Shown one piece after another: positions 6,959 through 53,116 of a stretch of 64,000 nt of DNA. The first letter of the stretch is position 1. The number at the start of each line of letters is the position of its first letter. Both the position numbers and the translations under genes were made by a program. The notes below the pieces were generated by a model that was not told the origin of the DNA, did not search any database, and worked only from the letters and a program-made list of their open reading frames with translations. This stretch comes from Nostoc sp. S13 (GTDB lineage Bacteria > Cyanobacteriota > Cyanobacteriia > Cyanobacteriales > Nostocaceae), in contig NZ_JAQYWQ010000003.1 of assembly GCF_029379315.1 (NCBI RefSeq), positions 1-64,000 on the forward strand, in the 5' to 3' direction.

Positions 6959-7009
6959 AATTTATTGTACCCATCAATAACTACTATTTAAAAATGCTGT
7001 GTTTGATAT

Positions 7010-7948: not shown

Positions 7949-7963
7949 GATCGGAAATAATAA

Positions 7964-10084: not shown

Positions 10085-10090
10085 TGTCAA

Positions 10091-10903
10091 TTAACCATTC
10101 TCTGTAAAACCGGGGTACAAGGTCATACCACCGTCTACAAACAGTGTTATACCATTAACATAATCAGAGTCATCAGAAGCCAACCAAACTGCTGCTTTGG
10201 CGATATCTTCTACATCTCCCACACGTTTGGCTGGAATCAGTTTTAGTAACTTCTCCTCTGCTTCTGGAGTATCCCAAGCTGATTTATTAATTGGAGTTTT
10301 GATTGCACCAGGAGCAATACTATTGACGCGAATTTTGTGGGGTGCAAGTTCTTGGGCAATACTTTGCATCATCATATTTATACCGCCCTTACTGGAAGCA
10401 TAATTAACATGCCCCGCCCAAGGAATTATCTGATGCACTGAACTTATACAAATAATCTTACCTGCGGCAGATGAAATCTGGGGCTGTACACCTCGGCGCA
10501 AGAATTCTTTTGCAGCTTCCCGCGCACATAAGAATTGTCCTGTCAGGTTTACCTCAATAACTCTATTCCATTGCTCAAGGGTCATATCTACAAACGCTGA
10601 ATCTTTTTGAAGACCTGCATTGTTTATCAAAATGTCAATAGTGCCGAATTGTTCGAGTGTCTGGCTGAACATCGCCTTTATTTGGTCTTCTTTGCTGACA
10701 TCAGCTTGAATAGCAAAAGCTTCACCATTAGCCGCTTTGATCTCATCAACAAGTTTTTGGGCTGACTCAGCTTCCGAATAATAGTTGACAGCTACTGCTG
10801 CACCTGATAAAGCTAAATAGCGAGCGATCGCTTCACCAATGCCAGAACTAGCACCCGTCACAAGTGCTTTTTGACCTTTAAGTAGGTCAGGAGAATAGCT
10901 CAT
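10091..10903 (-). CDS. short-chain dehydrogenase, glucose 1-dehydrogenase-like
   Basis: 270 residues, classical SDR. It has the cofactor motif TGASSGIG at 16-23, the structural NNAG, the catalytic Ser and YASSK (Tyr-x3-Lys), and the C-terminal DYVNGITLFVDGGMTLYPGF, which resembles Bacillus-type glucose 1-dehydrogenases and related 3-oxoacyl reductases. The overall likeness favours glucose or a related polyol as substrate with NAD(P). It is the first gene of the operon with debranching enzyme, CDF transporter and glucoamylase, which fits oxidation of released glucose to gluconolactone (inference). The upstream gap of about 600 bases should contain the operon promoter. Confidence 0.8.
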   Translation of the reverse strand: MSYSPDLLKGQKALVTGASSGIGEAIARYLALSGAAVAVNYYSEAESAQKLVDEIKAANGEAFAIQADVSKEDQIKAMFSQTLEQFGTIDILINNAGLQKDSAFVDMTLEQWNRVIEVNLTGQFLCAREAAKEFLRRGVQPQISSAAGKIICISSVHQIIPWAGHVNYASSKGGINMMMQSIAQELAPHKIRVNSIAPGAIKTPINKSAWDTPEAEEKLLKLIPAKRVGDVEDIAKAAVWLASDDSDYVNGITLFVDGGMTLYPGFTENG

Positions 10904-25150: not shown

Positions 25151-26233
25151 TTAACCGTTGATAGCAGGGGCAGTCATTGCTACAGGAGTAACTTCACCAG
25201 CAGCTAAGTCTAGGGGGAAGTTGTGAGCGTTACGCTCGTGCATTACTTCCATACCCAAGTTAGCGCGGTTGATTACGTCTGCCCAAGTGCTGATAACGCG
25301 ACCTTGGGAGTCAATGATTGATTGGTTGAAGTTGAAACCGTTCAAGTTGAACGCCATTGTGCTGATACCCAAAGCGGTAAACCAGATACCAACGACAGGC
25401 CAAGCTGCGAGCAAGAAGTGCAATTGACGGCTGTTTTGAAATGATGCGTATTGGAAAATTAAACGACCGAAGTAGCCGTGGGCTGCAACGATGTTATAGG
25501 TTTCTTCTTCTTGACCGAACTTGTAACCGTAGTTTAATGATTCGGTTTCAGTGGTTTCACGCACCAAGGAAGAAGTTACTAGAGAACCGTGCATTGCAGA
25601 GAACAATGAACCGCCGAATACACCAGCCACACCTAACATGTGGAAGGGGTGCATTAAGATATTATGTTCTGCTTGGAACACAATCATGAAATTGAAGGTT
25701 CCAGAGATACCCAAAGGCATACCATCAGAGAAAGAACCTTGACCGATAGGGTAGATCAAGAATACTGCGGTAGCGGAAGCCAAAGGTGCGCTGTAAGCTA
25801 CGCAGATCCAAGGACGCATACCTAAGCGGTAAGAAAGTTCCCACTGACGACCCAGGTAGGTAGCACAACCAATTAAGAAGTGGAAAATTACTAACTGGTA
25901 AGGGCCGCCATTGTACAACCACTCATCTAAGGAAGCAGCTTCCCAGATTGGGTACAAGTGCAAGCCGATGGCGTTTGAAGAAGGAACAACTGCACCAGAG
26001 ATGATGTTGTTTCCATAGATCAAAGAACCTGCAACTGGTTCGCGGATACCATCGATGTCTACAGGAGGAGCAGCGATGAAAGCAATTACGAAGCAGGTGG
26101 TCGCAGCTAGCAGGGTAGGAATCATCAAAACGCCGAACCAACCGATGTATACACGGTTTTCGGTGCTGGTGATCCACTCGCAGAAGCGATCCCATACGCT
26201 AGCGCCAGAGCGCCGTTGTAAGGTTGTGGTCAT
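25151..26233 (-). CDS. psbA: photosystem II D1 protein
   Basis: 360 residues, full length. The expected functional residues are present: Tyr161, Asp170, Glu189, His190, His198, His215, Ser264, His272, His332, Glu333, His337, Asp342 and Ala344, after which a 16-residue extension would be removed by CtpA. Residue 130 is Gln, which marks the D1:1-like form made under ordinary light rather than the Glu130 high-light form. It is a single gene here; cyanobacteria carry several copies, so others are expected elsewhere. Transcription ends at the hairpin 25097-25130. The leader is AT-rich, and no classical ribosome binding site is seen before the ATG. Confidence 0.98.
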
Positions 26234-26420
26234 TGTTTTATAAGTGCTATGGGTTGTTAAATATGGAACAAGCGGATTATTTTTCGCCTGCTAAAATCCA
26301 GTCTACAAGAATTTACTTTCAGCTGATCTGTGATTTAATATTCTGTAATATTATGATTCAACAAACTCATCAAACTGTAAAGTTTTCCTACTATGAAATA
26401 ATAATGAATTGAGGCTTTAT
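26234..26420 (-). promoter_or_regulatory. psbA promoter and leader region
   Basis: On the minus strand a TTTACA (26381-26376) lies upstream of CATAAT (26355-26350), but at 20 bases, wider than the usual 16-18. Overlapping TAATAT at 26353-26348 is an alternative -10. The transcript would have a leader of roughly 110 bases. The boxes are tentative. The rest of the 433-base gap up to 26666 holds a short element (26560-26650). Confidence 0.35.
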
Positions 26421-26559
26421 TAAGCCATTTCAAGACCAAAGGAAATGTAACTTTCAATGACGCGATCGCCTACTTACTTTGCTTTACACTTCTTTACAAT
26501 TAGAGCGGATGAAAAATTTTAAGCCTTCCTGATTTGTCACCAGACAATAAGTTCTATAT

Positions 26560-26650
26560 TAGACATCTCCAGAAATTAAATATGCGTTATCTAGAACCAT
26601 TGTAGAGAGGCGAAATTTCGCCTCTCTACATTCTTTTTGGGAGATGTCTA
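26560..26650. mobile_element. 91-bp MITE-like element with central 30-bp palindrome
   Basis: TAGACATCTCC (26560-26570) and GGAGATGTCTA (26640-26650) are perfect 11-bp inverted ends beginning and ending with TA, as expected for insertion at a TA target. The centre, 26601-26630, is a perfect 30-bp palindrome with half-site TGTAGAGAGGCGAAA, followed by TTCTTTTT, so it may also act as a terminator. Confidence 0.75.
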
Positions 26651-26666
26651 TTGTTTGATGTTTGAG

Positions 26667-28166
26667 TTAAAAATCAAAGTAGATGTAGGGTAAACTGCCT
26701 TCAGGAGCTAATAACCAAACAGCGTAGAAACATAAAGGCACGAAGACAAGCTTAAGCGGCCAGTTCAACTCTAACTTCAGAATTCGGTTGAAAGCATAGA
26801 CTACAGCCATAAGGGCAGCGATAGCTAGAAGTACCCAAGTGAGTTGGTATTGGCTCATATTTAAGGCTTCCACATAGACCTTTTCAGCAAACTGGGGATC
26901 AGCAGGATAACCCCAAAGATGCCGAATTACTAAAGAAGAGTCTTGGAGGTTAGGTAGGCGGAACCAGATCCAAGAGGTAAAAACCATCAGTTGGGTCAAT
27001 AACCAAGCAACAAAGATACCCAGAGGATTTTCCCAGAATTCTTCCAAATTTTCAAAGCGATCGCTTATAGCATCGGTAAGTCGATGAACCACCAAGGCTA
27101 ACCCGTGGAATATGCCCCAAACGACATAACCCAAAGCAGCACCGTGCCAAATACCAGCGATTAGCATTATAATAAGTAAATTCCAGCAGGTACGGACTAA
27201 ACCCCGACGGGAACCACCCAAAGGAAAGTAGATATAGTTACGTAGCCAATCTCCGAGAGTGATGTGCCAGCGCCGCCAAAATTGGGCAATATTAGTGCTG
27301 AAATAGGGAAAGTCGAAATTCTCAGGTAGAACCAAGCCGAAAAGCAAAGCACTACCACGCGCAATGTCTACGTAACCATTGAAATCTAGATATAACTGCA
27401 ATCCGTAGGCGAATGTAGCTAACCAGAGATCGGTACTACCCGCCCGTTGCAAATTACCAAAACATAAATCAACAAAAATTCCCAGGTGGTCTGCCAAAAT
27501 ACCTTTTTTGACTGCGCCCCTAGCAATCAACCACAGCGCCTCTGCGACTCTATCGCTACTGGGGAAGTCTAGTGTATTGAATTGATTTGCTAAATTGTGG
27601 TAGCGCGTAATCGGGCCGGAAATCAGTTTGGCGAAGAATAGTTTGTACGTGGCAAATTTGAGAAACTGCTCAGTAGCAGGAGCACCGCGATAGACATCTA
27701 TTAAATAGGCAATGCATTCAAAGGTGAAAAATGAAATTCCCAAGGGTGCAATCAATTTAAAAGAGCTATCTGGTGAGTTTGTTTCTAGATGAAAAACAAA
27801 CTTGAATAAAGGGGTGAAATACTTAAAACCTAATAACAGTAAAACATTTAGAGTTATACCCAGCCACAAAAGTTTTACACGGCGAAGATTCCAGTCAGTT
27901 TGGGCAAATTGCCACTCTTCGTTAGAAATTTGCCAGTCACGAGAATGTTTACCTGGTGATGTGTTATTTCCAATCTCCAGCCCCACACGAAAATTAATAA
28001 ACGTCAATGCTAATAGTAATGGTATGTACTGGATCTGCAAAGATGCGTAGAAAACCAAACTAGCAATTAGCAGCGTCCACAATCGCAATTTCTCTTGTAC
28101 TAAAGACCAGTAAATTCCTAACACACTCAACAAGAACAGCCCATAGAAAATTGATATAAAGTTCAT
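26667..28166 (-). CDS. MBOAT-family O-acyltransferase (AlgI-like)
   Basis: 499 residues, about ten membrane helices. The AlgI-type core is visible: FWRRWHITLGDWLRNYIYFP at about 296-315 and AGIWHGAALGYVVWG, with the catalytic-candidate His at 341. AlgI-like MBOATs move acetyl groups across the membrane for O-acetylation of polysaccharides. It follows, by 148 bases of tandem repeats on the same strand, a DUF1574/SGNH-like protein that is a plausible transfer partner, as AlgJ/AlgX are to AlgI. The start ATG is the last ATG of a TGACAAA heptamer array, and the leader consists of repeats. Confidence 0.9.
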   Translation of the reverse strand: MNFISIFYGLFLLSVLGIYWSLVQEKLRLWTLLIASLVFYASLQIQYIPLLLALTFINFRVGLEIGNNTSPGKHSRDWQISNEEWQFAQTDWNLRRVKLLWLGITLNVLLLLGFKYFTPLFKFVFHLETNSPDSSFKLIAPLGISFFTFECIAYLIDVYRGAPATEQFLKFATYKLFFAKLISGPITRYHNLANQFNTLDFPSSDRVAEALWLIARGAVKKGILADHLGIFVDLCFGNLQRAGSTDLWLATFAYGLQLYLDFNGYVDIARGSALLFGLVLPENFDFPYFSTNIAQFWRRWHITLGDWLRNYIYFPLGGSRRGLVRTCWNLLIIMLIAGIWHGAALGYVVWGIFHGLALVVHRLTDAISDRFENLEEFWENPLGIFVAWLLTQLMVFTSWIWFRLPNLQDSSLVIRHLWGYPADPQFAEKVYVEALNMSQYQLTWVLLAIAALMAVVYAFNRILKLELNWPLKLVFVPLCFYAVWLLAPEGSLPYIYFDF

Positions 28167-28314
28167 TTGTCATTTGTCATTTGTCATTGGGCATTGGGCA
28201 TTGGTCATTGGGCATTGGGCATTGGTCATTGGGCATTTGTCATTTGTCATTTGTTTTGGCGTTAAAACTCCTAACTCCTAACTCCCCACTCCCCACTCCC
28301 CACTCCCCACTCCC
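28167..28314. repeat. heptamer arrays between the MBOAT and DUF1574 genes
   Basis: On the plus strand, TTTGTCA, CATTGGG and CATTGGT units occupy 28167-28255 with shifts every seven bases. From about 28265 to the DUF1574 stop run AACTCCT and CCCACTC units. Read on the minus strand, the TGACAAA units lead directly into the MBOAT start codon. Confidence 0.9.
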
Positions 28315-31314
28315 CTATTTCACTGGCCAAGGAATCATCGGGTCATTAGCAAGCTTTTTCGAGACTTCGTATGCTCCAAAGCGGTTGAGGTGGCTAGGGT
28401 CAGAAAAGTAGTCATTTGCTTTTATCCACTGTTGACTCAAATCACGATAAATAAACTTGGGATTAGTAGCCAAATGCAACATATATTGCTGAAATTCTTG
28501 CTCATATTGTCTACGCACTGGATCTAAATAATCTTCCGTCAGAGGCATATTGACAAACACTAGGAAAATTTTCTGAGACTCGGCAAACTTAAGCACTTGT
28601 TGAAAGGCAGCATCTTGCTGTCCTTCTACTTGGAAAGATTTATAATCGTTGTCGTAATTTCCCGGAACTCGAGAATGTTTTTGATAGTATCTAGCAGGAT
28701 TGAAGCGAATAGACAAAGGTAGAAAGCCATCAAAGTCAACTGCTTGTTGGGAAGTACTCTCATCTGAAGTACCGTCTGTTAGCTGTTTTTGTGATGCAAC
28801 TGTCTGATTATGACCTGGTGTGAGCAGTTGTTTTTGCAGTAAACTTTTAATTTGGTCGCGGTTTTGATAGCTAGCAGAAACAGATGCTAGGGCCTGATTT
28901 AACGACTGATTAACAGCTTCATAGATACTAATCTCCGGTTTTTCTTCCTTTGTCTTTTCTTCTGGCGAATTTACCGTATTTTGTGGCAAATCATTACTAT
29001 TTGCAATTGTTGGTGTTTTTTGGAATGCTTGTTTATAACCAGCTGATGCAGCGATCGATTTAAAGGTAATATCCTCGCGTCCACCGTTAAAAGCACGGGC
29101 ACCATCTGCCCAGATAATTATTTTAGGTAGTTCTGATGGTTCGAGTACCTGGCGAATCACAAAGTCTACAACTTGTGCAGTAGCACCGTTGATCCCAAAG
29201 TTAAACACGCCAATATTTGGATAGCCCTGAGTCGCTAAAGCTTTAGAAAGTGCTGCAGGATCAATTCCCCTGAGGGCACGAGAGGAGCCAATAATTAACA
29301 CATCAGGCGGACTACCAGTTCTAGCCAAACGCTGTTTATACAATGCTAGTTGCTCGTCTAACTGCCTGACATTGAAACTTGGCATCTGCGATCGCGCTGC
29401 TAAAAGAATAGCGGTAGCGGTTGCTTTTTCCTTCAGTGGTGCGGCTGCCAAATTCTGGATTGGGGTATTATCACTTTGGGTAAATTCCGAAGCATTAAAT
29501 ACAGAACTCTGATTTGGAGGGTATTTCGTCTTAGCAGTGCTAGGAAACAATGTCGTTTTATCACTCTGATTTTTCCCAGATGTCAAAGACGCCTTTTGCC
29601 CAGAGGATGATGGGGGTGAGATATTAGTGGGCGTAGTACGGGCGATAATTAGACCCAATACCCAATCAGTTTGGAAGGTGAGTAATAATCCCAGTGTTCC
29701 CCAAACCAGAGCCACCTTAAGTCCTTGAGCATCAGGGTTTGCTTCGGCTGACTGGTAGCTTTCGGTAAATAGCTGGCTACTCAACAGGAATTTTTTCGCT
29801 GTTGCACTCGCTGTTGCTATCCAACCTCGCGCTACTTCTGTCACAAAAGTTTGAACTTCTTCTGTCGTTAAGTCGGGGCGCAAAATTGGTTCGTTATTTT
29901 CAGAGGTTACTAGATCGTTAACGTATTTAGAAGTAGCAGCAAATTCTGGGGTTGCTTCTGGGACTAAACGCTGCCGTTGCTCAAGATCAAGTCCATAGTG
30001 CCAAAAAGGTTCTTTATTGCCAGCACGGCGACCGTACACACGTATCCCCATAATACCGGGAATTTTTAACTGGCGGATAAACTGCGTAATTTTGCTTGCT
30101 ACTTGTTCACGCCCTGGACAAACAGGTGCATCACACATGATGTGCAATAAATCATTTTTGACCAGTAGGAGTACGCGAATTCCACCTGTCAATAGCCGCC
30201 AATCCAAATCAGGATTGAGTAAACGCTCCAGTAAAAATACGATCGCTGGTTGATCGCCAGTATTCGCCAAATCGAGCGGTGATGTGGCAAAGGCGGGATG
30301 CTTTGTAGCGGGTAAAGCTAGCCAATCAATCCAAGTTGCTTGCTTGTCACCTGCTTTTTGTCCGTATACGGTGGCGGCGAGAATGCCTTGAGGAGCGATC
30401 GCTTCTAACTGCGGTAAAATCGCCTCTAAGCATACTACCTTGTCTGGGATTGGGGCAGTTCCTAAGGGATCAAAAGCTGGGATACAAAAAATATGTAGCG
30501 TTGATTCTTTAACAGAAACTTGGACAGCAACTTTTAACTCTGATAGTACCTCAGTTAATAATCGAGCGATCGCTTGTACATCCCCCCAACGCGCCCACTC
30601 CTTCAGCATTACCTCTGGTGGTGTCAAATCCACCCGCAGTAGCCAATCAGGTGCGGTTTCGCCGCTCACCTGGGAAACAATTACTGCATCTTGGTAGCCG
30701 GAAAGCTTGAGAAAACGCAACTTTTGTGCTATTGGTTCAGCCAGCAATGAGGCATCAGGGCTATAGCTCGACTGGCAAAATATCCACAGGCGATTTTCTT
30801 CTGGCTGAGAGTTCTTTGGCTTAAATAGCTTAATCTTTGCCTGTACCGATACACCTAACATACTCAGACTTTCGCTGAGATACCGAGCAATGGCCTCTGG
30901 GTTCCCTTGGCGTGCCAAACTTTCGTTAGAGACAATCAGCGCCCCACCAGATTGTGTTGATTTTTCCGAGTCTGCTAGTAACGCTTGCTGCACCTGCTCC
31001 AGATGCTTATCTATTTGATTTAAGTAAACTCGATGGCACCATTTGGGGCGCTGTTCGCCTTTTCTTCGCCCATAGACGAATACTTGATATATTGACGGTT
31101 CTTCGTTGCTTGTGAGGATATCCAAGTCAGTTTGCTGTAGTGCTTGCAGCAAGTCAGACAAAGTGCGCCAACGCTGCGGACATTCTGTACCTTCACAAAG
31201 AATATGAAGGTCATTTCCCCGTAACCGGACTTTCACTCCGAAAGTGTTGATCCCTGTTGCTTGGCTTACCCATTGCAATAAGGATTGCTGGCGATCTGGT
31301 AATACTATTTTCAT
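28315..31314 (-). CDS. DUF1574/SGNH-like protein with four N-terminal repeat modules
   Basis: 999 residues. The N-terminal half has four diverged copies of a ~70-residue module (about 27-98, 158-228, 263-334, 379-447) with pattern LHIxC, a CP or similar turn, a helix, VxVYGRRAG and a W strand. A membrane helix spans about 531-553. The C-terminal part (650-999) resembles an SGNH hydrolase/acyltransferase: IIGSSRALRGID at about 674-685, FNFGINGATAQ at about 704-714, and DPSHLNRFG with Asp972 and His975. A polymer O-acetylation role with the following MBOAT is likely; the four modules are of unknown function and face the cytoplasm if the helix is a signal anchor (inference). Confidence 0.8.
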   Translation of the reverse strand: MKIVLPDRQQSLLQWVSQATGINTFGVKVRLRGNDLHILCEGTECPQRWRTLSDLLQALQQTDLDILTSNEEPSIYQVFVYGRRKGEQRPKWCHRVYLNQIDKHLEQVQQALLADSEKSTQSGGALIVSNESLARQGNPEAIARYLSESLSMLGVSVQAKIKLFKPKNSQPEENRLWIFCQSSYSPDASLLAEPIAQKLRFLKLSGYQDAVIVSQVSGETAPDWLLRVDLTPPEVMLKEWARWGDVQAIARLLTEVLSELKVAVQVSVKESTLHIFCIPAFDPLGTAPIPDKVVCLEAILPQLEAIAPQGILAATVYGQKAGDKQATWIDWLALPATKHPAFATSPLDLANTGDQPAIVFLLERLLNPDLDWRLLTGGIRVLLLVKNDLLHIMCDAPVCPGREQVASKITQFIRQLKIPGIMGIRVYGRRAGNKEPFWHYGLDLEQRQRLVPEATPEFAATSKYVNDLVTSENNEPILRPDLTTEEVQTFVTEVARGWIATASATAKKFLLSSQLFTESYQSAEANPDAQGLKVALVWGTLGLLLTFQTDWVLGLIIARTTPTNISPPSSSGQKASLTSGKNQSDKTTLFPSTAKTKYPPNQSSVFNASEFTQSDNTPIQNLAAAPLKEKATATAILLAARSQMPSFNVRQLDEQLALYKQRLARTGSPPDVLIIGSSRALRGIDPAALSKALATQGYPNIGVFNFGINGATAQVVDFVIRQVLEPSELPKIIIWADGARAFNGGREDITFKSIAASAGYKQAFQKTPTIANSNDLPQNTVNSPEEKTKEEKPEISIYEAVNQSLNQALASVSASYQNRDQIKSLLQKQLLTPGHNQTVASQKQLTDGTSDESTSQQAVDFDGFLPLSIRFNPARYYQKHSRVPGNYDNDYKSFQVEGQQDAAFQQVLKFAESQKIFLVFVNMPLTEDYLDPVRRQYEQEFQQYMLHLATNPKFIYRDLSQQWIKANDYFSDPSHLNRFGAYEVSKKLANDPMIPWPVK

Positions 31315-40228: not shown

Positions 40229-40522
40229 CTACATTGCATCCACCAATTCCAAACGTATCCGTTTACCAACCACTCTGGCAGCACGAGCAATGGTGTCTAA
40301 GGATACAGATAAGTTACTGGGGTCTAACAGCCGATCAAGAGATGATCTGCTAGTTTTCATCTCTTTTGCCATTGCTGCCTTATTCAACTTTTTTTCTTCC
40401 ATTGCTTTGCTAATCTGCCATGCAATAACACGTTTAGCAGCAATCAGGTTAATTTCTTCAAGTGTCCCTTCTTCTTCAAGAAGGTCATCAAGAGACGAAC
40501 CAACATATGGATTTTTGTTCAT
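40229..40522 (-). CDS. HTH (XRE-like) antitoxin of a HigBA-type pair
   Basis: 97 residues. The central region (QISKAMEEKKLNKAAMAKEM, SRSSLDRLLDPSN) is an XRE helix-turn-helix; the tail (SLDTIARAARVVGKRIRLEL) resembles HigA-like antitoxins. It overlaps the upstream toxin by four bases (ATGA). As usual for HigBA the toxin gene comes first. Confidence 0.85.
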   Translation of the reverse strand: MNKNPYVGSSLDDLLEEEGTLEEINLIAAKRVIAWQISKAMEEKKLNKAAMAKEMKTSRSSLDRLLDPSNLSVSLDTIARAARVVGKRIRLELVDAM

Positions 40523-40869
40523 CTTTGCGCCTCCACTTTTTGCTTGCGTTCTAAGGCTAACTCCAATTCTCTTTGTGGAGTTTTCTGAGTTTTTTTGATA
40601 AACCCATTGAGAAGAATCATTTTTTCGTCATAAATGCAAAACAACACACGAGCTTTTCGACCTTGAGGTAAATTTGTACGTACCTCAAATAGTCCTTTAC
40701 CCATTGGACGGCAAGTTGGCATCCCAATTGGCCATCCAATCTCTACTGTTTTAATATCCGCACCAATTAATTTTCGATCTTCTTGGTCTAAGTCCTTTAA
40801 CCAATCACGAACAGGTTCTGTACCATTTTCGTTTTGATAGAACTGTGCAGGAATTCGTTTTTCTTCCAT
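40519..40869 (-). CDS. RelE/HigB-type (Gp49-like) toxin
   Basis: 116 residues. The family core LFEVRTNLPQGRKARVLFCI and LLNGFIKKTQKTPQRELELA, with a basic C-terminus, is the pattern of Gp49-like mRNA interferases. It sits first in a two-gene operon with an overlapping HTH antitoxin. Catalytic Lys/Arg residues appear conserved, so it is probably intact. Confidence 0.85.
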   Translation of the reverse strand: MEEKRIPAQFYQNENGTEPVRDWLKDLDQEDRKLIGADIKTVEIGWPIGMPTCRPMGKGLFEVRTNLPQGRKARVLFCIYDEKMILLNGFIKKTQKTPQRELELALERKQKVEAQR

Positions 40870-44436: not shown

Positions 44437-44460
44437 ATTTGTATTTGCATTGTCAGAGCA

Positions 44461-44579
44461 TAAGTAAGTGGGTCAAATTAAATATAAAACCTCACCCTGC
44501 CTCCGGCTTGCCTCTCCTTGCTAAGGAGACGGATTAAGCGTAAGGTTTGATTTTATATTTAATTATGCCTACCTATTTA
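44461..44579. mobile_element. MITE-like element related to 37891-38055
   Basis: The left end TAAGTAAGTGGGTC followed by AAATTAAATATAAAA is mirrored at the right by TTTTATATTTAATTATGCC and ACCTATTTA. The inverted ends are about 30 bp long and imperfect. With the glmM hairpin this fills most of the gap before the hpsL-like gene. Confidence 0.65.
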
Positions 44580-44772
44580 TCTGGCTAATTTATATTTTGG
44601 AAACAGGAGAGAATCTTTTTGATAATTCCAAAAGATTAAGATTTAGCATTTTTAATCGCAAATTATTAAATCAATCAGTTAGAAATGAATTCCGATTGTA
44701 CGAGTTAGAGCAATCCAAAGAAATTTGTCAACTATAATAGATTTTCTGAGGCTGATAGGCTACAGCACCACC

Positions 44773-46431
44773 ATGCCAAAATTCAAGTCAAAATCTCAGC
44801 AATCTAAAAAGTCGAAAAAGCAGGCTAAAAAGGAAACTTCTACCCTTAGCCTCAAAGAACAGTTAGCCAAAAAGCGCAAAGCAGCTAAAGCACGTAAAGA
44901 ATTCATTAGCTTACTCACCACCGCCTCCTTTGGCGGTGTCTTCGTTGGCATTGTGCTTTTTTTTGTAGCTGGGATTAAAGCAGCAGTCCCTGGTGTCTTG
45001 GGGATAATCATCATATCCCTTTCCTACAAATACCCGCGCCAAGCACTATATGCCTTCATTATTTATGTACCTATTGGGGGTACTATCACCTATTACTTGG
45101 GCAATAGTCCCATACTCCAATTAGCTAAAGATACTTTTTACGTTCCAGCGCTAATTGGACTTTGGCAGACTTGCCGTAAACAGGGGCTACCCCTAATTAT
45201 TCCCCAAGGCATTAAAATCCCACTTTATATTGTTTTAGGTTGCAGTCTGCTAACGCTGTTGTTTATCAATGGTGGTCAGCAATTGAACCCGCCTAGTGTG
45301 GGACTATTTGAAAAAGCAGAGAAAGAAATACCATTAGCTATGGGAATTCTGGGACTAAAAGTATTTTTAGGCTATGTCCCCCTGATTGGTTGTGCTTACT
45401 ATTTAATTCGCGATAAGCGGGATTTTCTATTTTTATCACGCCTCCAGATTGTTCTCATACTAATTTGCTGTGTGCTGGGATTTTTTCAATACCTGTTACT
45501 ACTAACTGGTGTATGTCAAGGCACTAGAGGTCTTGAAGGAGATGCCTTATTTAGAGCAACACTCGATGCCAGGTGTTATATTGGTGGAGCGCTAGTATAT
45601 AGTCCCGATGAAGGGGTTATTCGCCTACCAGGGACATTTGTAGCTCCTTGGCAGTGGGCATGGTTCTTAATTGCCAGCACCTTTTTTACCTTTGCCAGCG
45701 GCTTCACCGATCCCTCTCCGATATGGCGGTTGGTTGGTTTAGGTTCTTTAGTGGGAGTCTTTCTCAATTCTGTAATCTCTGGACAGAGAATCGCCTTAGC
45801 TTTAGTACCAATCTGCTTCGGGATTTTGCTATTGATCACTGGACAAATTGGCAACCTGAAACGATTTATCCCCATAGGCGTGGGGCTTGCCTTGATTGTG
45901 GGAATTGCGATGGTGACTAACCCTACTCTCGTGCAAGAGAGAACCGAGAGTTTTACGGGTCGCTGGGACGCTTCACCACCTCAAGATTTTATCATCCAGC
46001 AATTTGAAGAGAATTGGAAAAACGTAGACGGGCCACTGGGAAGTGGCTTAGGTCGAGCAACTAACTCTACCCGTGCATTGGGTAAAAGTAAGCTTGTGGA
46101 AACCTACTACCCCAAAGTACTTTATGAAGTTGGAATTATTGGAGTACTAGCGTTTCTGGGTTTGGTAACAAGTTTAACAATTATTGGCTTTAAAACCTAT
46201 CGCTCCATAAAGAACCGTAATTTCCGCAGTTACGCAGCAGCTTTGTGGCTGTTTATAGTGTTTATCAGCTACAACACCTACTACTATCCTCTGGATGTTG
46301 ATCCGGTTGCTGTCTATTATTGGTTTTTTGCAGGAGTTCTTTTTAAAATACCAGAACTAGATAAACAAGAGAGAAAAGATGCTGAATCTCAACCACAAAT
46401 TCCAAATAAACGATTAAAAACAAAATTTTAA
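44773..46431 (+). CDS. hpsL: HpsL-like polysaccharide polymerase/ligase
   Basis: 552 residues from ATG 44773. A very basic N-terminal tail (Lys/Ser-rich, about 1-50) precedes about ten membrane helices and a long loop with CQGTRGLEGDALFR and GVIRLPGTFVAPWQW, the layout of Wzy/O-antigen ligase proteins. From memory it resembles the HpsL protein of hormogonium polysaccharide synthesis. The last ~85 codons are duplicated at 47723-47973. A perfect AAGGAGGA starts at the last base of its stop and serves the next gene. Confidence 0.7.
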   Translation: MPKFKSKSQQSKKSKKQAKKETSTLSLKEQLAKKRKAAKARKEFISLLTTASFGGVFVGIVLFFVAGIKAAVPGVLGIIIISLSYKYPRQALYAFIIYVPIGGTITYYLGNSPILQLAKDTFYVPALIGLWQTCRKQGLPLIIPQGIKIPLYIVLGCSLLTLLFINGGQQLNPPSVGLFEKAEKEIPLAMGILGLKVFLGYVPLIGCAYYLIRDKRDFLFLSRLQIVLILICCVLGFFQYLLLLTGVCQGTRGLEGDALFRATLDARCYIGGALVYSPDEGVIRLPGTFVAPWQWAWFLIASTFFTFASGFTDPSPIWRLVGLGSLVGVFLNSVISGQRIALALVPICFGILLLITGQIGNLKRFIPIGVGLALIVGIAMVTNPTLVQERTESFTGRWDASPPQDFIIQQFEENWKNVDGPLGSGLGRATNSTRALGKSKLVETYYPKVLYEVGIIGVLAFLGLVTSLTIIGFKTYRSIKNRNFRSYAAALWLFIVFISYNTYYYPLDVDPVAVYYWFFAGVLFKIPELDKQERKDAESQPQIPNKRLKTKF

Positions 46432-46441
46432 GGAGGATAAA

Positions 46442-47602
46442 ATGGTGAAAGTTATTATAGGTGGTCAACAACATCTCAGCGTTCCTAATCTTCCTCGTAA
46501 TTCTGAACATACTCTGATTCGTTCTAAAACTTTTCTCACAGGCAAATATCCTATAGATAAAGTTTGGTATCCTTTAGGAAGTTTTATGCCTTGGCGACCT
46601 GTATGGGGTGGATACGAGGTAATTCATACTTTTAATAGAATTATCTGTACTAATAAACCTTGGTTTGTCACTTTTGAAGATCATCGGTTTTTGTATAGAG
46701 ATCCGCAAACTCAACTAGAAGAATTCACTTATAAATTTCTGAATAATCGTTTGGCACTAGAAAACTGCAAAAAAATTATTGCCATATCTGATTATGCTAG
46801 ATTGCGATTCATGAACTGGGTACAAGAATGGGATACAATATCAAAAATAATCGGTAAAGTAGATGTCATACACCCAAATTTCCCTGTGAGGGTTAACCAG
46901 TATAAATCTTATCAAAATCAGCAAAATCTTCAACTTATTTTTATTGGCAACCACATTGCCAGAAAAGGCGGAGTTGTGGCTTTAAGACTAGCCAAGAAAG
47001 CAACAAAGTTAGGTTTACCTATTACTATACATATAGTGTCTGAACTATGGTGTGGTGTCGGCGTACCTACTGATTTTCCTGATGCTAATAGATATGCAGA
47101 AGATTTAAAGTTACTCGATTTAAATAATGTCGTTTTCCATAACATAATTCCGAATGCAAAAGTTATAGAATTACTATCACAAAGTCATTTTCAACTGATG
47201 CCATCATTAATGGATACCTATGGTTATAGCATTATTGAAGGTTTCTCTGTTGCGACTCCGGCAATTACAACCAATGTATGTGCTTTGACAGAAATTGTTC
47301 GTCACGGTGAAAATGGATATGTTTTAGAATTACCACTGGACAAACTCAGACATTGGGGTAATTGGCTAAATGGTGAAAAAACTAAAACTGAAGAATATTG
47401 GGAAATTGTCAATCATACCTACGATGATTTAGCAGAGCAGGCATTACAACAAGTACAAGAATTTTTAGATAGAAGTGATAAACAGGAACATTACGAGTCT
47501 CTCAGTGCTGGAGCTTTAGCACAAGTGATCAATGTCCACGACGCTGAAAAACAAAATAAGTTATTCGATAATCTCTACACAGCAGCGGCAAGGTTATACT
47601 GA
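46442..47602 (+). CDS. GT4-type glycosyltransferase in the inserted cassette
   Basis: 386 residues. The C-terminal half is a GT-B donor domain: LIFIGNHIARKGGVVALRLA, then MPSLMDTYGYSIIEGFSVAT with the Glu motif and NVCALTEIVRHGENGYVLEL. It should add a sugar to the lipid-linked repeat unit; donor unknown. AAGGAGGATA at 46431-46440 is the best ribosome binding site in the region. It sits between hpsL and the duplicated hpsL tail, and its codon use is more AT-rich than hpsN/O/P, so it was probably acquired with the tail (inference). Confidence 0.8.
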   Translation: MVKVIIGGQQHLSVPNLPRNSEHTLIRSKTFLTGKYPIDKVWYPLGSFMPWRPVWGGYEVIHTFNRIICTNKPWFVTFEDHRFLYRDPQTQLEEFTYKFLNNRLALENCKKIIAISDYARLRFMNWVQEWDTISKIIGKVDVIHPNFPVRVNQYKSYQNQQNLQLIFIGNHIARKGGVVALRLAKKATKLGLPITIHIVSELWCGVGVPTDFPDANRYAEDLKLLDLNNVVFHNIIPNAKVIELLSQSHFQLMPSLMDTYGYSIIEGFSVATPAITTNVCALTEIVRHGENGYVLELPLDKLRHWGNWLNGEKTKTEEYWEIVNHTYDDLAEQALQQVQEFLDRSDKQEHYESLSAGALAQVINVHDAEKQNKLFDNLYTAAARLY

Positions 47603-47722
47603 AGGTTCGGATGTATTAGTAGATAAACTGTACCTTCAGGAGTGCCAAGTGTTGTTAGCGGTAGCGGGGCGTTTAGTCTGTGCTGAGTAACCCCATACTT
47701 CGGTAAGCTCAGTAACCAACTC

Positions 47723-47973
47723 TAACAATTATTAGCTTTAAAACCTATTGCTCCATAAAGAACCATAATTTCCGCAGTTACGCAGCAGCTTTGTGGTTGT
47801 TTATATTGTTTATTAGCTACAACACCTACTACTATCCTCTAGATGTTGATCCAGTTGCTGTCTATTACTGGTTTTTTGCAGGAGTTCTTTTCAAATTGCC
47901 AATATTAGATAAACAAGAGAAGAAAGAAGCAGATCCTAAGCAAGCAGGAAAACAAAAACGTCTAATAAGCTGA
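47723..47973 (+). pseudogene. displaced 3' fragment of hpsL
   Basis: About 250 bases match 46175-46431, the hpsL 3' end, with scattered substitutions and a divergent final 20 codons (KKEADPKQAGKQKRLIS versus the present hpsL end). The frame is open and ends at TGA, but nothing upstream supplies the rest of hpsL. It is a remnant left when an hpsL-end/glycosyltransferase cassette recombined into the locus (inference). Confidence 0.85.
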
Positions 47974-48175
47974 CGGGACATAGTGAAAATACTCCAGTAC
48001 GCTATCGGTGGACAGAAGCTTGCTTGTGTATTAAGCTTAACCAAGAGTTGCTAAATCTTCTTAGTGGCTAAGTCTGGTATCTTTCTAGTTATCACCAGGT
48101 ATTAGCGAATAACCAGCCTGTAAAGGTCGAATTACTGGATATCAAGCTGAATATAAACTCCGAGATATCACATAG

Positions 48176-49297
48176 ATGAATACTCCTAGTCAAATACGCC
48201 AAACTAGATTTAATTGGATTGATCAGACAAAAGGATTAGCAATTTTAGCAATTGTCATATTTCATTTTTTCCAAAATTATCCAGAGCGATCGCAACTAAT
48301 TTCAGTTTTAGATAGTAATGGAGCAAAGCTCGGATATGCTGCTGTAGATATATTCTTTTTAATGGCTGGGTTGAACACAAGTTATGCTCTCATCTCTAAG
48401 TTACAAAAAAATCAGATAGTACCGATTAAAATTAATTGGAGATTATGGTTAATTAAACGTTTGTATAGAATATATCCTGCTTATATACTAGCTGTTATAT
48501 TAAGTTGCTTACTTTATTTATTTACTAATAGTAAGATTAATTTAAACCTAAATTTTTTCTTATCATTTATAGGTATAGCCGGGATAAAATTCCAATCAAT
48601 CAACCCTGGATTTTGGTTTTTCACAGTAATTCTAGAGGCTTATTTACTTACACCATTGATATTTTCATTTTCCCATAAAAAGCCGAATAAAATATTATTT
48701 TTAGGACTTACGGGAGCAATAATAACGAAGCTTTTAGCTTTTTACTTTTTTATAGTTGATGATACGAATATTTATTTATTTTTATTGCAAAATAATTTTA
48801 TAGGAAGTTATCTATTTCAGTTCTGTCTGGGACTTTATTGGGGATTTATCTATGCCGAGCATCAAACTTTTAGAAAAATAGATTTTATTGTTGCAAGTAT
48901 TATTTTTAGTATGGGAATTCTTATTTTTGCTATCTTAACTATTTTTAAAATAAAATATATATATATGTTAGGTATAGATATGCTGTTTACTCCTTTATTT
49001 TTTTTGGGTATTCAAGCATTATTATACCGTCTCGATAAAATAGCTAAAATTGGACGTATACTAAGCTTTGTTAGTATATTAGGAATTTATTCTTATCAAA
49101 TTTATCTAATTCATCAACCTTTGTATTTTGTTTTATTACCTAAATTATATTCTATGATTCAGATAAATAACTATTTGAAGATAGGGGTTTCTTTAATGAT
49201 AGTGAGTATTTTACTGGCAATTTATGTATTTTCATTTATTAAAATAGAGCGATTCGTAATGAAAATGTTTGGAAAAGTGATGAGTAAGCAAAATTAG
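48176..49297 (+). CDS. acyltransferase family 3 membrane protein
   Basis: 373 residues, about ten membrane helices. It opens with RFNWIDQTKGLAILAIVIFH, the conserved His near the first helix, and continues with YAAVDIFFLMAGLNTSYAL and RLYRIYPAYILAV, all usual for acyltransferase_3 (PF01757) proteins that O-acylate sugars. The gene is visibly the most AT-rich in the window, with runs of A/T-ending codons, which suggests transfer from another background. It probably decorates the polymer built by the surrounding glycosyltransferases. Confidence 0.85.
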   Translation: MNTPSQIRQTRFNWIDQTKGLAILAIVIFHFFQNYPERSQLISVLDSNGAKLGYAAVDIFFLMAGLNTSYALISKLQKNQIVPIKINWRLWLIKRLYRIYPAYILAVILSCLLYLFTNSKINLNLNFFLSFIGIAGIKFQSINPGFWFFTVILEAYLLTPLIFSFSHKKPNKILFLGLTGAIITKLLAFYFFIVDDTNIYLFLLQNNFIGSYLFQFCLGLYWGFIYAEHQTFRKIDFIVASIIFSMGILIFAILTIFKIKYIYMLGIDMLFTPLFFLGIQALLYRLDKIAKIGRILSFVSILGIYSYQIYLIHQPLYFVLLPKLYSMIQINNYLKIGVSLMIVSILLAIYVFSFIKIERFVMKMFGKVMSKQN

Positions 49298-49355: not shown

Positions 49356-50339
49356 ATGGCTAATTACCCTTTAATTTCTGTAGTTATACCAACCTATGAG
49401 CGAGAGGAACCTCTACGCGATAGTATTGTGGATGTTCTAAAACAGGACTATCCAAATTTTGAAGTTTTAGTTGTAGACCAAACCTCAAAACACCAAGCAG
49501 AAATTCAAGCCTACCTGGAAGAGATGGCGGAGGCAGGTAAAATTAAATGGTTGCGCTTAGATTGGGCAAGTTTGCCAGGGGCGCGGAATTATGCCGTCCG
49601 GCGGTCATCTGGTGAAATAATATTATTTATTGATGATGATGTTCAGCTAACGCCTGGATTGCTAGCAGCCCATGCGAAAAATTATTTGCAAAACCCAGAG
49701 GTGGGCGCTGTGGCAGGACGGGTATTTGACAGAATGAAATTGGGTGATTCTGGGGGAGATTTAGAGATTGAATATCTGCCTCCCCAGGCAATGGACCCAG
49801 GAATTGCTTGGTATCATATTGATTTAGTACATACTATCAAACCCCAGCAAGTACTGACAGCGAGGGGTTGTAATATGTCTTTTCGACGCGATATTTTTAC
49901 TAAGTACGGACTGAGATTTGATGAGAGGTTTGGCGGTAGTGCAGTGCGCGAAGAGTCAGATTTTTGTTTGCGAGTGCGACAAACGGGGTATAAGATTTGG
50001 TACGACCCAGAAGCCCATTTGGTGCATTTAGGCGAAGAAACAGGGGGTTGTCATGATATTAGTATGCGATCGCTCAAATATCAACTCACCTTCTACCACA
50101 ACCATTTTTTACTGGGGCTGAAAAACCTCACTCCGACTCAAGCTTTACGCCTATACGCTCGTTTATTTGACTGTCACGTCCTGGGACGCCCACCTTGCCA
50201 TAAAAGCGGTTCCCCTATCAAAATTGCCACTCGCGGTATTTTCTACATTTTGGGTTTTTTCAAAGCTTTGGGTACTGTCATTCAATCAATATGGAACGAT
50301 GGTCAAATTTACAGTCGGTTTGATCAAAAAGTTTCGTGA
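49356..50339 (+). CDS. hpsN: GT2 glycosyltransferase, HpsN-like
   Basis: 327 residues, GT-A fold. PLISVVIPTYEREEPLRDS opens the domain, LFIDDDVQLTPG carries the DxD metal site, and EESDFCLRVRQTGYKIWYDP the ED-type acceptor region. It resembles the HpsN glycosyltransferase of hormogonium polysaccharide synthesis (recognised from memory, not by search). The stop codon is followed at once by a CATTGGG heptamer array. It is followed by HpsO- and HpsP-like genes. Confidence 0.7.
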   Translation: MANYPLISVVIPTYEREEPLRDSIVDVLKQDYPNFEVLVVDQTSKHQAEIQAYLEEMAEAGKIKWLRLDWASLPGARNYAVRRSSGEIILFIDDDVQLTPGLLAAHAKNYLQNPEVGAVAGRVFDRMKLGDSGGDLEIEYLPPQAMDPGIAWYHIDLVHTIKPQQVLTARGCNMSFRRDIFTKYGLRFDERFGGSAVREESDFCLRVRQTGYKIWYDPEAHLVHLGEETGGCHDISMRSLKYQLTFYHNHFLLGLKNLTPTQALRLYARLFDCHVLGRPPCHKSGSPIKIATRGIFYILGFFKALGTVIQSIWNDGQIYSRFDQKVS

Positions 50340-50395
50340 TTGGGCATTGGGCATTGGGCATTGGGCATTGGGCATTGGGCATTGGGCAAAAACTC
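50340..50395. repeat. CATTGGG heptamer array after hpsN
   Basis: Six to seven uninterrupted 7-base units begin at the hpsN stop codon. Further TGACAAA units at about 50508-50520 lead to the hpsO start. Confidence 0.9.
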
Positions 50396-50531
50396 TCTAA
50401 AACTCTTATTTCTTTGCGTCCTTTGCGTCTTTCTCTAACGAGACGCTGCGCGAAGGCGGTTCATTTTTTCATAATTTTGCGTAAGTACTGGTTGTTTAAA
50501 AAAAATGACAAATGACAAATAATAAATAACA

Positions 50532-51707
50532 ATGAAAATCTTAGTTGCTAGTCACACTTATATCGTAGACCTCAACTGTGAAAAATTACGCGCTTTATCT
50601 CAACTAGAAGCGGGAGTTGAAGTGACAGTTGTAGTCCCAAAGCGCTGGAAACCAGGTGGCGTGCAAAACAGAATTATTGAAACTGAATACCGCAATGAAG
50701 GCAGATTTAGAATAGTTCCCGTTTCTAATTTCAGTCAAAATCATCAAGGACTTCTGACATTTGGGGCTGATTTGATATCTTTGTTAAAACAGTTTCGTCC
50801 CCAAATCATCCAGGTGGAACAAGGGTCTAGAGCATTGGCTTATACTCAGATGATTGGTTTAAATAAACTCTTAGGACTCAAAGCAAAAAATGTATTTTTT
50901 ACTTGGTGGAATCTACCATACAGCCTGAAGCTACCAGTTTCTTTGTTAGAAAAATATAACCTCCATCACAGCCACGGTATTATTTCTGGCAATCAGGATG
51001 GAGCAGAAGTTTTGCGACAACGAGGATATCAAGGGTCAATTAAAGTCATGCCACAACTGGGCGTAGATGAAAGTCTATTTACTCCCAAACCCCAACCAGA
51101 GTTAGCAGCTAAGTTGGACATTGAAAAAGGAGATTTTGTGGTAGGTTTTGTCGGGCGTTTTGTGCAAGAAAAGGGTTTATTAACACTTTTGCAAGCCTTA
51201 ATAACTTTGAAAAATAAACCTTGGAAATTACTTCTGCTAGGACGCGGAGAGTTGCAAAGTGAATTAATCAAAATTGCGGTAGAAAATAATATTAAAGAGC
51301 GGTTAATTTTGGTAGAGAGTGTGCCTCATGATGAGGTTGCAAACTATATCAATTTAATGAGTACTTTGGTACTGCCTTCAGAAACAACTTACAAATTTAA
51401 AACCTTAACTTCTGTTGGCTGGAAAGAACAATTTGGTCATGTCCTAATTGAGGCAATGGCTTGCCAAGTCCCTGTAATTGGTTCTGATTCTGGTGAAATT
51501 CCCTATGTAATTGGCGATACTGGTTTAGTATTTCCTGAAGGTGATACTCAAGCCCTTGCTAATTGCTTAGTTCAATTAATGGATAAACCCTCTTTTGCTT
51601 ATACTCTCGGTGAAATGGGTTATCAAAAAGCAATGATTAAATATACAAATCAAGCTTTAGCTAAACAGCAATTAGAATTTTATCAAGAATTGGTTAATAG
51701 TCATTAG
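50532..51707 (+). CDS. hpsO: GT4 glycosyltransferase, HpsO-like
   Basis: 391 residues, GT-B. The acceptor half begins MKILVASHTYIVDLNCEK; the donor half shows VGFVGRFVQEKGLLTLLQAL, LLLGRGELQSELIK and EQFGHVLIEAMACQVPVIGS with DSGEIPYVIGDTGLVFPEGD, the GT4 E-x7-E region. It resembles HpsO of the hormogonium polysaccharide set. TGACAAA units lie 12-25 bases upstream, with a degenerate AATAATAAATAACA just before the ATG. Confidence 0.7.
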   Translation: MKILVASHTYIVDLNCEKLRALSQLEAGVEVTVVVPKRWKPGGVQNRIIETEYRNEGRFRIVPVSNFSQNHQGLLTFGADLISLLKQFRPQIIQVEQGSRALAYTQMIGLNKLLGLKAKNVFFTWWNLPYSLKLPVSLLEKYNLHHSHGIISGNQDGAEVLRQRGYQGSIKVMPQLGVDESLFTPKPQPELAAKLDIEKGDFVVGFVGRFVQEKGLLTLLQALITLKNKPWKLLLLGRGELQSELIKIAVENNIKERLILVESVPHDEVANYINLMSTLVLPSETTYKFKTLTSVGWKEQFGHVLIEAMACQVPVIGSDSGEIPYVIGDTGLVFPEGDTQALANCLVQLMDKPSFAYTLGEMGYQKAMIKYTNQALAKQQLEFYQELVNSH

Positions 51708-51901
51708 TCATTAGTTATTAGTAGACCTCTTGCATAAATCACAAATAAGAACCCCAAAGAGCCAAAGCGTAGCTTTGTCTCCCCTAAGAGCAGGCTCTTA
51801 GGGGATTAAGGGGAGCCAGTGCCGGAACAGGAGTCTCCCCAAGTAGAGCATCTGGCGTGTGCGATGTTAGGGACTTTTGCAAGATATCTAGTGAATAAAA
51901 A

Positions 51902-51952
51902 ATGACAAATGACAAATGACAAATGAAAATATTACAAATGAAAATATTACAA
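51902..51952. repeat. TGACAAA array merging into the hpsP start
   Basis: ATGs at 51902, 51909, 51916 and 51923 are each 7 bases apart. The last begins hpsP. It is followed by a 15-base direct repeat, ATGAAAATATTACAA, at 51923-51937 and 51938-51952, which adds five residues at the N-terminus. Confidence 0.85.
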
Positions 51953-53116
51953 ATTGTCCCCTCAATTTCTCTGATTTACGGCGGCCCCAGTCAAATGGTA
52001 CTAGGACTAGCTCCAGCGTTGGTAAAAGAGGGAGTAGAAGTTACAATTCTCACAACTGATAGTAATGGCGATAATGGTCAAACACCTTTGGATGTTCCTT
52101 TAAATCGCCCAATTAAACAAGATGGCTATGAAATAATTTACTTTCGTTGTGCCCCGTTTCGTCGCTACAAATTTTCCCTAGATTTATTAAACTGGCTAAA
52201 ACGTCATGCTCACGAGTTTGATATAGCACATATTCATGCTCTATTTTCCCCAATAATTAGTGCTGCTGCTATTGTATGTCGTCAGCAAAAGCTACCTTAT
52301 ATTTTCCGTCCTTTGGGTACTCTCGATCCGGCTGATTTACGCAAAAAAAAGCAATTAAAACAGCTTTATGTCGCAATTATAGAACGTCAAAATTTAGCTG
52401 GTGCGGCAGCAATTCATTTTACCAGCGTTCAAGAAGCCAAAATATCAGAACGATTTGGAGTATCTACGCCAGATTTGGTGATTCCGTTGGGTGTAATTCC
52501 CCGTCAATCCCCTCTTAAAAATGTATATAGTCAGCTGGAAATACCGGAGGATGTACCGTTGGTGCTGTTTATGTCACGAATTGACCCGAAAAAGGGGTTA
52601 AATTTGTTAATTCCGGCGCTAGAGAAGCTGTTAGCGGTTGGTTATAAGTTTCATTTTGTCTTAGCTGGAACAAATCCCCAAGATCCAGATTACGAAAAAA
52701 AGATAATATCCCAAATTCAAAATTCACCACTGCGATCGCACACTACAATTACGGGCTTTGTCACTGGTGAATTAAAAATTAGTTTACTACAAGCTGCTGA
52801 TTTATTTGTCTTACCTTCCTATTACGAAAATTTTGGGATTGCTGTCGCGGAAGCGATGGTAGCAGGAACACCGGTGGTAATTTCTGACCAAGTGCATATT
52901 TGTCAACAGGTGCGTGATAGCGAGTCGGGTTGGGTAGGCGCAACAGATGTGCAAGCGCTGGTAGAGTTACTGCAAGAAGCTTTGCAAAATCCCGCAGAAC
53001 GCCAACGACGGGGATTAAACGCCCAAAAATATGCCTTGGAAAATTTTAGCTGGGATGCGATCGCTAGGCAAACAATCCAAGCCTACCAGCAAATTCTGGC
53101 GAACAAATTAATTTAA
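51923..53116 (+). CDS. hpsP: GT4 glycosyltransferase, HpsP-like
   Basis: 397 residues, GT-B. The acceptor half is IVPSISLIYGGPSQMVLGLA; the donor half has VLFMSRIDPKKGLNLLIPAL and FVLPSYYENFGIAVAEAMVA with GTPVVISDQVHI. It resembles HpsP. A 15-base tandem duplication gives it an N-terminus reading MKILQMKILQ, so either of two ATGs (51923, 51938) could be the start; the second gives the canonical N-terminus. It is the last gene of the hps-like run. Confidence 0.7.
   Translation: MKILQMKILQIVPSISLIYGGPSQMVLGLAPALVKEGVEVTILTTDSNGDNGQTPLDVPLNRPIKQDGYEIIYFRCAPFRRYKFSLDLLNWLKRHAHEFDIAHIHALFSPIISAAAIVCRQQKLPYIFRPLGTLDPADLRKKKQLKQLYVAIIERQNLAGAAAIHFTSVQEAKISERFGVSTPDLVIPLGVIPRQSPLKNVYSQLEIPEDVPLVLFMSRIDPKKGLNLLIPALEKLLAVGYKFHFVLAGTNPQDPDYEKKIISQIQNSPLRSHTTITGFVTGELKISLLQAADLFVLPSYYENFGIAVAEAMVAGTPVVISDQVHICQQVRDSESGWVGATDVQALVELLQEALQNPAERQRRGLNAQKYALENFSWDAIARQTIQAYQQILANKLI

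What the first reader, a model, noticed from the sequence alone, without database searches (positions are those of the whole stretch)
44773..49297. Cassette exchange in the hps locus marked by a duplicated hpsL 3' end
The last ~250 bases of hpsL recur at 47723-47973 with an intact frame and a divergent terminus, bracketing a glycosyltransferase gene with a perfect Shine-Dalgarno at the hpsL stop. The simplest history is that foreign DNA carrying an hpsL end plus a glycosyltransferase recombined within hpsL, leaving the resident tail behind. The very AT-rich acyltransferase follows directly. The exchange would change the sugar and acyl decoration of hormogonium polysaccharide, like serotype switching in pathogens.
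Basis: partly seen in the sequence, partly recalled or inferred. Interest (0 to 1): 0.75.

Follow-up and report, generated by a model that had tools for sequence, protein, structure and literature searches.

The report
Recombination scar in Nostoc slime locus
A Nostoc cyanobacterium appears to have picked up a sugar-transferase gene in the locus that makes its motility slime, and the event left the old end of the neighbouring gene behind as a scar, so two genes that relatives nearly always carry as alternatives now sit side by side.

Summary
The duplicated hpsL 3' end is real: 46169-46420 recurs at 47717-47968, 252 nt, 85%. Relatives explain it. The hpsL-hpsN interval is a variable slot: of 51 same-genus relatives with hpsL, 38 have a GT4 glycosyltransferase there (hpsM position), 3 an acyltransferase (AT), 10 neither, 0 both. 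The window has both, with an old hpsL tail between. Tail 2 is the AT-type hpsL end (100/97; one clade of both tails rejected, p-AU 0.014). The window's hpsL is AT-like from 45373 to 46248, then becomes the least AT-like of 48 genomes. At the right join a dispersed repeat meets hpsL at GTAAC. Best reading: a fragment with an hpsL end plus hpsM entered an AT-type locus by one homologous and one illegitimate join, and no gene was lost. One relative (NMS9) shows a clean exchange inside hpsL. The donor is unsampled, the effect on the polysaccharide is inferred, and misassembly is unlikely but not excluded.

The parts
44773..46248 (+). hpsL, resident part
   Evidence: NF038300; in the four segments of 45373-46248 at most 1 of 47 other same-genus genomes is nearer the AT-types; in 44773-45372 8 and 6 of 47 are nearer
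46249..46431 (+). hpsL 3' end of incoming type (tail 1); the hpsL frame stays open
   Evidence: 31 of 175 positions unlike every AT-type hpsL, a larger share than in any of 47 other genomes; ends KRLKTKF*
46430..46436 (+). ribosome-binding site AAGGAGG overlapping the hpsL stop
   Evidence: Sequence
46442..47602 (+). GT4 glycosyltransferase at the hpsM position, divergent allele, open frame of 386 codons
   Evidence: PF00534; related gene in the same place in 38 of 51 same-genus relatives; D258 and E266 identical in all 29 sequences aligned, this one included
47633..47690 (+). dispersed repeat 1 in the spacer after the glycosyltransferase (ends approximate)
   Evidence: Similar stretches elsewhere in the genome
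47691..47717 (+). dispersed repeat 2, CCCCATACTTCG..AAGCTCAGTAACC, running into hpsL
   Evidence: 14 copies in the genome at up to 3 mismatches, this one included, against 0 for the reversed control; 9 of 14 continue with ATAAATAAATTTAG, here hpsL follows
47712..47716 (+). GTAAC shared by repeat 2 and resident hpsL at the right join
   Evidence: Comparison with AT-type hpsL
47717..47973 (+). tail 2: stranded 3' end of an AT-type hpsL, frame open; no ORF of 70 aa or more is listed for it
   Evidence: Clade with the 3 AT-type hpsL ends, 100/97; ORF list
47974..48175 (+). spacer between tail 2 and the acyltransferase, AT-type
   Evidence: Aligns with the same spacer in the 3 AT-type relatives, 89-92%
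48176..49297 (+). Acyl_transf_3 membrane acyltransferase
   Evidence: PF01757; 85-88% protein identity in 3 same-genus relatives at the same place
49356..53116 (+). hpsN, hpsO, hpsP downstream of the slot
   Evidence: NF038299, NF038298, NF038295 above cut-off; hpsN groups with two AT-type genomes, 100/89

Best explanation
The hpsL-hpsN interval of the hormogonium polysaccharide locus is a variable slot that holds hpsM (a GT4 glycosyltransferase), a membrane acyltransferase, or neither, and rarely both. This strain carried an acyltransferase-type locus. A DNA fragment with another strain's hpsL 3' end, its hpsM and a repeat-bearing downstream stretch entered it. The left side joined by homologous crossover within hpsL, at or somewhat before 46249. 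The right side joined illegitimately where a dispersed repeat ending in GTAACC met resident hpsL at GTAAC, a place about 80 nt upstream of the switch seen at 46249. The last ~257 nt of the resident hpsL and the acyltransferase were thereby pushed downstream intact. The new hpsL is a full-length hybrid, hpsM follows it with a strong ribosome-binding site, and the acyltransferase keeps its own upstream spacer, so the strain may express both slot genes. Shown: the duplication, the slot states, the kinship of the tails, the switch in hpsL, the repeat at the join, open frames. Inferred: direction and order of the steps, uptake by natural transformation, expression, and any change of the polysaccharide. 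Because the join lies upstream of the switch, a circular fragment or two chromosome copies probably took part (inference).
For: Duplicate and gene calls. Slot states in 51 relatives: 38 GT, 10 neither, 3 AT, 0 both. Tail 2 with the AT-types 100/97; tail 1 in the other same-genus group, 99/87. Window hpsL is AT-like in 45373-46248 and then flips: 0 of 82 positions unlike the AT-types in 46167-46248, 31 of 175 after it, p 4.8e-6. The spacer behind tail 2 is the AT-type spacer. hpsN groups with G048 and G040, 100/89. Against 16 chosen relatives, window 4562-10903 is nearest to G048 (93-94%) and 25151-31314 to G009, G040 and G048 (92-93%). Repeat running into hpsL at the join. G010 shows a separate exchange inside hpsL.
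Against: No donor: the best glycosyltransferase match outside this genome among 217 family genomes is 75%. The window allele pairs with Cylindrospermum NIES-4074 (100/95), but a tree keeping it with the genus is not rejected (p-AU 0.111). Tail 1 does not follow Cylindrospermum; it sits in the same-genus group on a long branch, so hpsL end and hpsM may differ in origin. hpsL 44773-45372 is not especially AT-like. Window, G048 and G040 do not form one clade in rpoB (p 0.304), hpsL 1-950 (p 0.122) or hpsO (p 0.224), though none of these rejects it; in 45673-46249 they group at only 89/89. In window 4562-10903 G040 and G009 matched only short pieces, so that segment does not rank them. No reads, so misassembly cannot be ruled out.
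Confidence: 0.8

Rival explanations
1. Opposite direction: the resident was a hpsL-hpsM strain, and a fragment with an AT-type hpsL end, acyltransferase and hpsN entered, joined illegitimately behind hpsM on the left and by homology in hpsN or beyond on the right.
For: It needs no circle or second chromosome. hpsN groups with AT-types while hpsO is nearest the GT-type G009.
Against: hpsL before the slot (45373-46248) is also AT-like, with at most 1 of 47 other genomes nearer in each segment, which this route does not explain. The resident hpsM would have to be an already odd allele.
Confidence: 0.12
2. Tandem duplication of the strain's own hpsL end followed by divergence.
For: Two copies lie in direct orientation 1548 nt apart.
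Against: One clade of both tails is rejected, p-AU 0.014 and 3.4e-5; tail 2 has the AT-type end and spacer.
Confidence: 0.02
3. Assembly chimera of two co-occurring Nostoc strains, one hpsM-type and one acyltransferase-type.
For: The genome is a draft of 238 contigs, completeness 93.2, and the 3 AT-type relatives are titled MAGs.
Against: Two misjoins about 1.5 kb apart would be needed. The right join shares only about 5 bases, and in the 40 best hits shown no other locus has this repeat next to hpsL. Contamination estimate 0.49.
Confidence: 0.06

Closest known systems
Vibrio cholerae T6SS effector-immunity arrays (PMC5361080, passages seen)
   Same: Model of incoming DNA anchored by homology on one side and joined illegitimately on the other; an old downstream gene is kept and displaced.
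   Different: There toxin-immunity modules; here a polysaccharide gene, with a piece of the anchor gene itself left as scar.
Rhs loci with orphaned 3' regions (named in the same passages)
   Same: Constant 5' region, variable 3' region, old 3' ends stranded downstream.
   Different: In hpsL the change is mostly a short tail; the cargo is the next gene.
Meningococcal capsule island with intact galE1 and truncated galE2 (PMC5349592, abstract in the listing)
   Same: Truncated second copy of a boundary gene beside surface-polysaccharide genes acquired by transfer.
   Different: A 24-kb island there; one gene here.
hpsL-hpsP of Nostoc punctiforme (order from a table passage of PMC10581220)
   Same: hpsL, a gene in the hpsM place, hpsN, hpsO, hpsP in this order.
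   Different: Here an acyltransferase and a stranded hpsL tail are present too.

Membership tests
hps (hormogonium polysaccharide) locus | hpsL, hpsN, hpsO, hpsP in order, above curated cut-offs | tested here: met
   NF038300, NF038299, NF038298 and NF038295 all above cut-off
HpsM | Gene between hpsL and hpsN orthologous to Npun_R0639 | tested here: inconclusive
   Position and kinship to the gene in 38 of 51 relatives met; the PCC 73102 protein itself was not compared
Homology-facilitated illegitimate recombination | One side joined through homology | tested here: met
   Switch inside hpsL seen at 46249
Homology-facilitated illegitimate recombination | Other side joined with little or no homology | tested here: met
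   Repeat-to-hpsL join sharing GTAAC
Homology-facilitated illegitimate recombination | Occurs on entry of linear DNA | not testable with these tools
   The join upstream of the switch fits a circle or two chromosome copies better (inference)
Tandem duplication | Copies are each other's nearest relatives | tested here: not met
Serotype or capsule switching | Exchange alters surface polysaccharide structure | not testable with these tools
   No chemistry available
GT4 glycosyltransferase | Glycos_transf_1 domain with E/D-x7-E motif | tested here: met
   PF00534; D258 and E266 identical in 29 sequences; the motif rule is recalled

The most novel reading that the evidence does not exclude
The hpsL-hpsN interval is a general exchange slot in Nostocaceae. 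The conserved hpsL gene acts as recombination anchor, and hpsM, acyltransferase and empty states are swapped between lineages, making the motility slime a polymorphic surface structure comparable to a capsule type. This strain caught two alternatives stacked in one locus.
Probability: 0.5. Interest if true: 0.6.

Novelty: new variant of a known kind. Interest (0 to 1): 0.45.

Why it matters
Hormogonium polysaccharide is required for movement in N. punctiforme (passages of PMC9239167), so natural variation in a gene of its locus can be tested. The stranded tail gives a directional record of a recombination event like that proposed for Vibrio effector arrays. The hps gene set is not fixed: at least 11 changes of slot state are needed on an rpoB tree of 51 rows, 50 of them counted (one gene only). 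The listings show no title or abstract on hpsM variation or on an acyltransferase in its place; most of those papers were not read, and the hps gene-set paper (Zuniga 2020, seen only in reference lists) was not among the listed papers.

Tried and rejected
Tandem duplication: rejected by tail trees. Acyltransferase as part of the import: not supported, its flanks on both sides are AT-type. A strong ribosome-binding site as a usual feature of this gene: the 6 same-genus junctions printed lack it. Donor search in 217 family genomes: nothing outside this genome above 75%. Claim that the glycosyltransferase is certainly from outside the genus: not made, p-AU 0.111. Idea that the first 80 nt of tail 2 are donor-derived, as in single-crossover integration: 4 of 80 against 3 of 174 differences, p 0.21, undecided. 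HpsL structure: a model of mean pLDDT 62.7 resembles WaaL ligase (Foldseek E 9.3e-5) and, more weakly, SEDS-type proteins; a hint only. The acyltransferase had no PDB sequence match at E up to 1, the glycosyltransferase three weak ones. No acyltransferase remnant in the GT or empty slots searched and no hpsM remnant in the 3 AT slots.

Rows left out: G090, G079 and G096 from the trees; G056-G058 also; G054-G058; G027 from the hpsL alignment behind; G038 from the hpsL 1-950 tree; G053 from the counts. rpoB was built for 51 of 53 genus genomes, without G024 and G045. Searches were given 16 of 52 relatives.
Full report
Observation. The window carries glmM, hpsL, a GT4 glycosyltransferase, a second hpsL 3' end, an Acyl_transf_3 gene (AT), then hpsN, hpsO and hpsP. 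The repeat is 252 nt at 85%. Of 217 family genomes, 193 have hpsL at E up to 1e-10 and 5 show two matches. Besides this genome these are two genes split over contigs (G038, G212), one gene in two overlapping pieces (G248) and two whole copies in a contaminated genome (G188). The search could miss short decayed copies.

What relatives have. Loci were fetched for 51 same-genus relatives with hpsL; G034 (72% complete) gave no match. Between hpsL and hpsN, 38 have the glycosyltransferase (in G038 it is broken), 10 have neither gene and 3 have the AT alone. Of the 10 empty slots, 9 keep a piece of the hpsM start, 37 nt in 3 and 88-89 nt in 6, so hpsM was deleted there. In 80 named loci the counts are 39 neither, 35 GT, 6 AT and 0 both; these overlap with the first set. 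N. punctiforme has hpsM between hpsL and hpsN (table passage of PMC10581220), so the gene is called hpsM by position; the PCC 73102 protein was not compared.

The acyltransferase. Of 217 family genomes, 13 have a relative at E up to 1e-30, this one included. In 12 of 13 it lies between hpsL and hpsN. In G237 it follows hpsL at a contig end, with stops, while hpsM and hpsN lie on another contig, so G237 may once have had both. G116 has both, as hpsL-AT-hpsM-hpsN without a tail copy. Holding both is therefore not unique to the window; the order and the stranded tail were seen only here. The AT gene is 25-27% G+C in all four genus members that have it, so its composition is no sign of recent arrival. 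H30 is identical in the 12 sequences aligned.

Kinship of the two tails. Tail 2 groups with the three AT-type hpsL ends (100/97), tail 1 with the other genus members (99/87); holding the two tails together is rejected (p-AU 0.014; 3.4e-5 on the last 179 columns). The 202-nt spacer after tail 2 is the AT-type spacer. In the four segments of hpsL 45373-46248 at most 1 of 47 other genomes is nearer the AT-types than the window is; from 46249 the window is the farthest of all. In 44773-45372, 8 and 6 of 47 are nearer. AT-type sequence thus flanks the insert on both sides, which makes the AT-type the likelier resident.

The right join. The spacer behind the glycosyltransferase holds two dispersed repeats. 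The second has 14 copies in this genome, this one included; 9 of 14 continue with ATAAATAAATTTAG, but here hpsL follows. Repeat and hpsL share GTAAC. By hand calculation, from no call, a chance overlap of five or more bases has a probability near 0.5%.

The glycosyltransferase allele. It is 67-76% identical to 37 other genus alleles, whose own pairwise mean is 85%. It pairs with Cylindrospermum NIES-4074 (100/95), but a genus clade including it is not rejected (p-AU 0.111). Tail 1 does not follow Cylindrospermum. The insert may itself be a mosaic.

A second exchange. NMS9 (G010) groups with seven empty-slot genomes over hpsL 1-950 (100/100) and with the AT-types over the last 179 columns (100/96). 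One clade of window and AT-types is rejected for the first stretch (p 3.8e-5), and one clade of G010 with the empty-slot genomes for the second (p 0.00114). Its hpsN, hpsO and hpsP are nearest empty-slot genomes. rpoB also rejects one clade of the three AT genomes (p 0.0003). The switch lies near hpsL nucleotides 975-1125, with no scar. The hpsL ends of seven empty-slot genomes form one clade (100/93) that rpoB strongly rejects, but their hpsL bodies group too, so larger stretches may travel. rpoB is one gene and may itself recombine.

Mechanism. The pattern fits one homologous and one illegitimate join, as proposed for V. cholerae effector arrays (PMC5361080, passages). Natural competence is reported for the filamentous Phormidium lacuna and Chlorogloeopsis fritschii (PMC12288463, passages); for this strain it is assumed. 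The opposite direction is kept as a rival at 0.12.

Function. HPS is needed for hormogonium movement (PMC9239167, passages). Both slot genes have open frames here. What they do to the polysaccharide is unknown, so a changed slime is inference.

Noticed in passing
L056, L060, L062-L065, L073, L080-L082, after hpsL: hpsM is missing in ten genus members; nine keep a 37-nt or 88-89-nt remnant of its start, L063 none.
   Followed up: partly
L152 8634-9820: Two transposase-like ORFs (DDE_3 and HTH domains) between hpsL and hpsM in Nostoc carneum NIES-2107.
   Followed up: partly
   Followed up: no
window 40229-40869, - strand: Gp49-like protein (PF05973) beside a small ORF, resembling a toxin-antitoxin pair by recall; the second ORF has no Pfam match at E up to 0.001.
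   Followed up: partly
window 50339-50388: Seven-base tandem repeat ATTGGGC directly after hpsN.
   Followed up: no
window 44460-44580: Imperfect inverted repeat, 37-nt arms, upstream of hpsL.
   Followed up: no
window 44773-46431: The HpsL model (mean pLDDT 62.7) resembles the WaaL O-antigen ligase, hinting at a polymerase or ligase role.
   Followed up: partly
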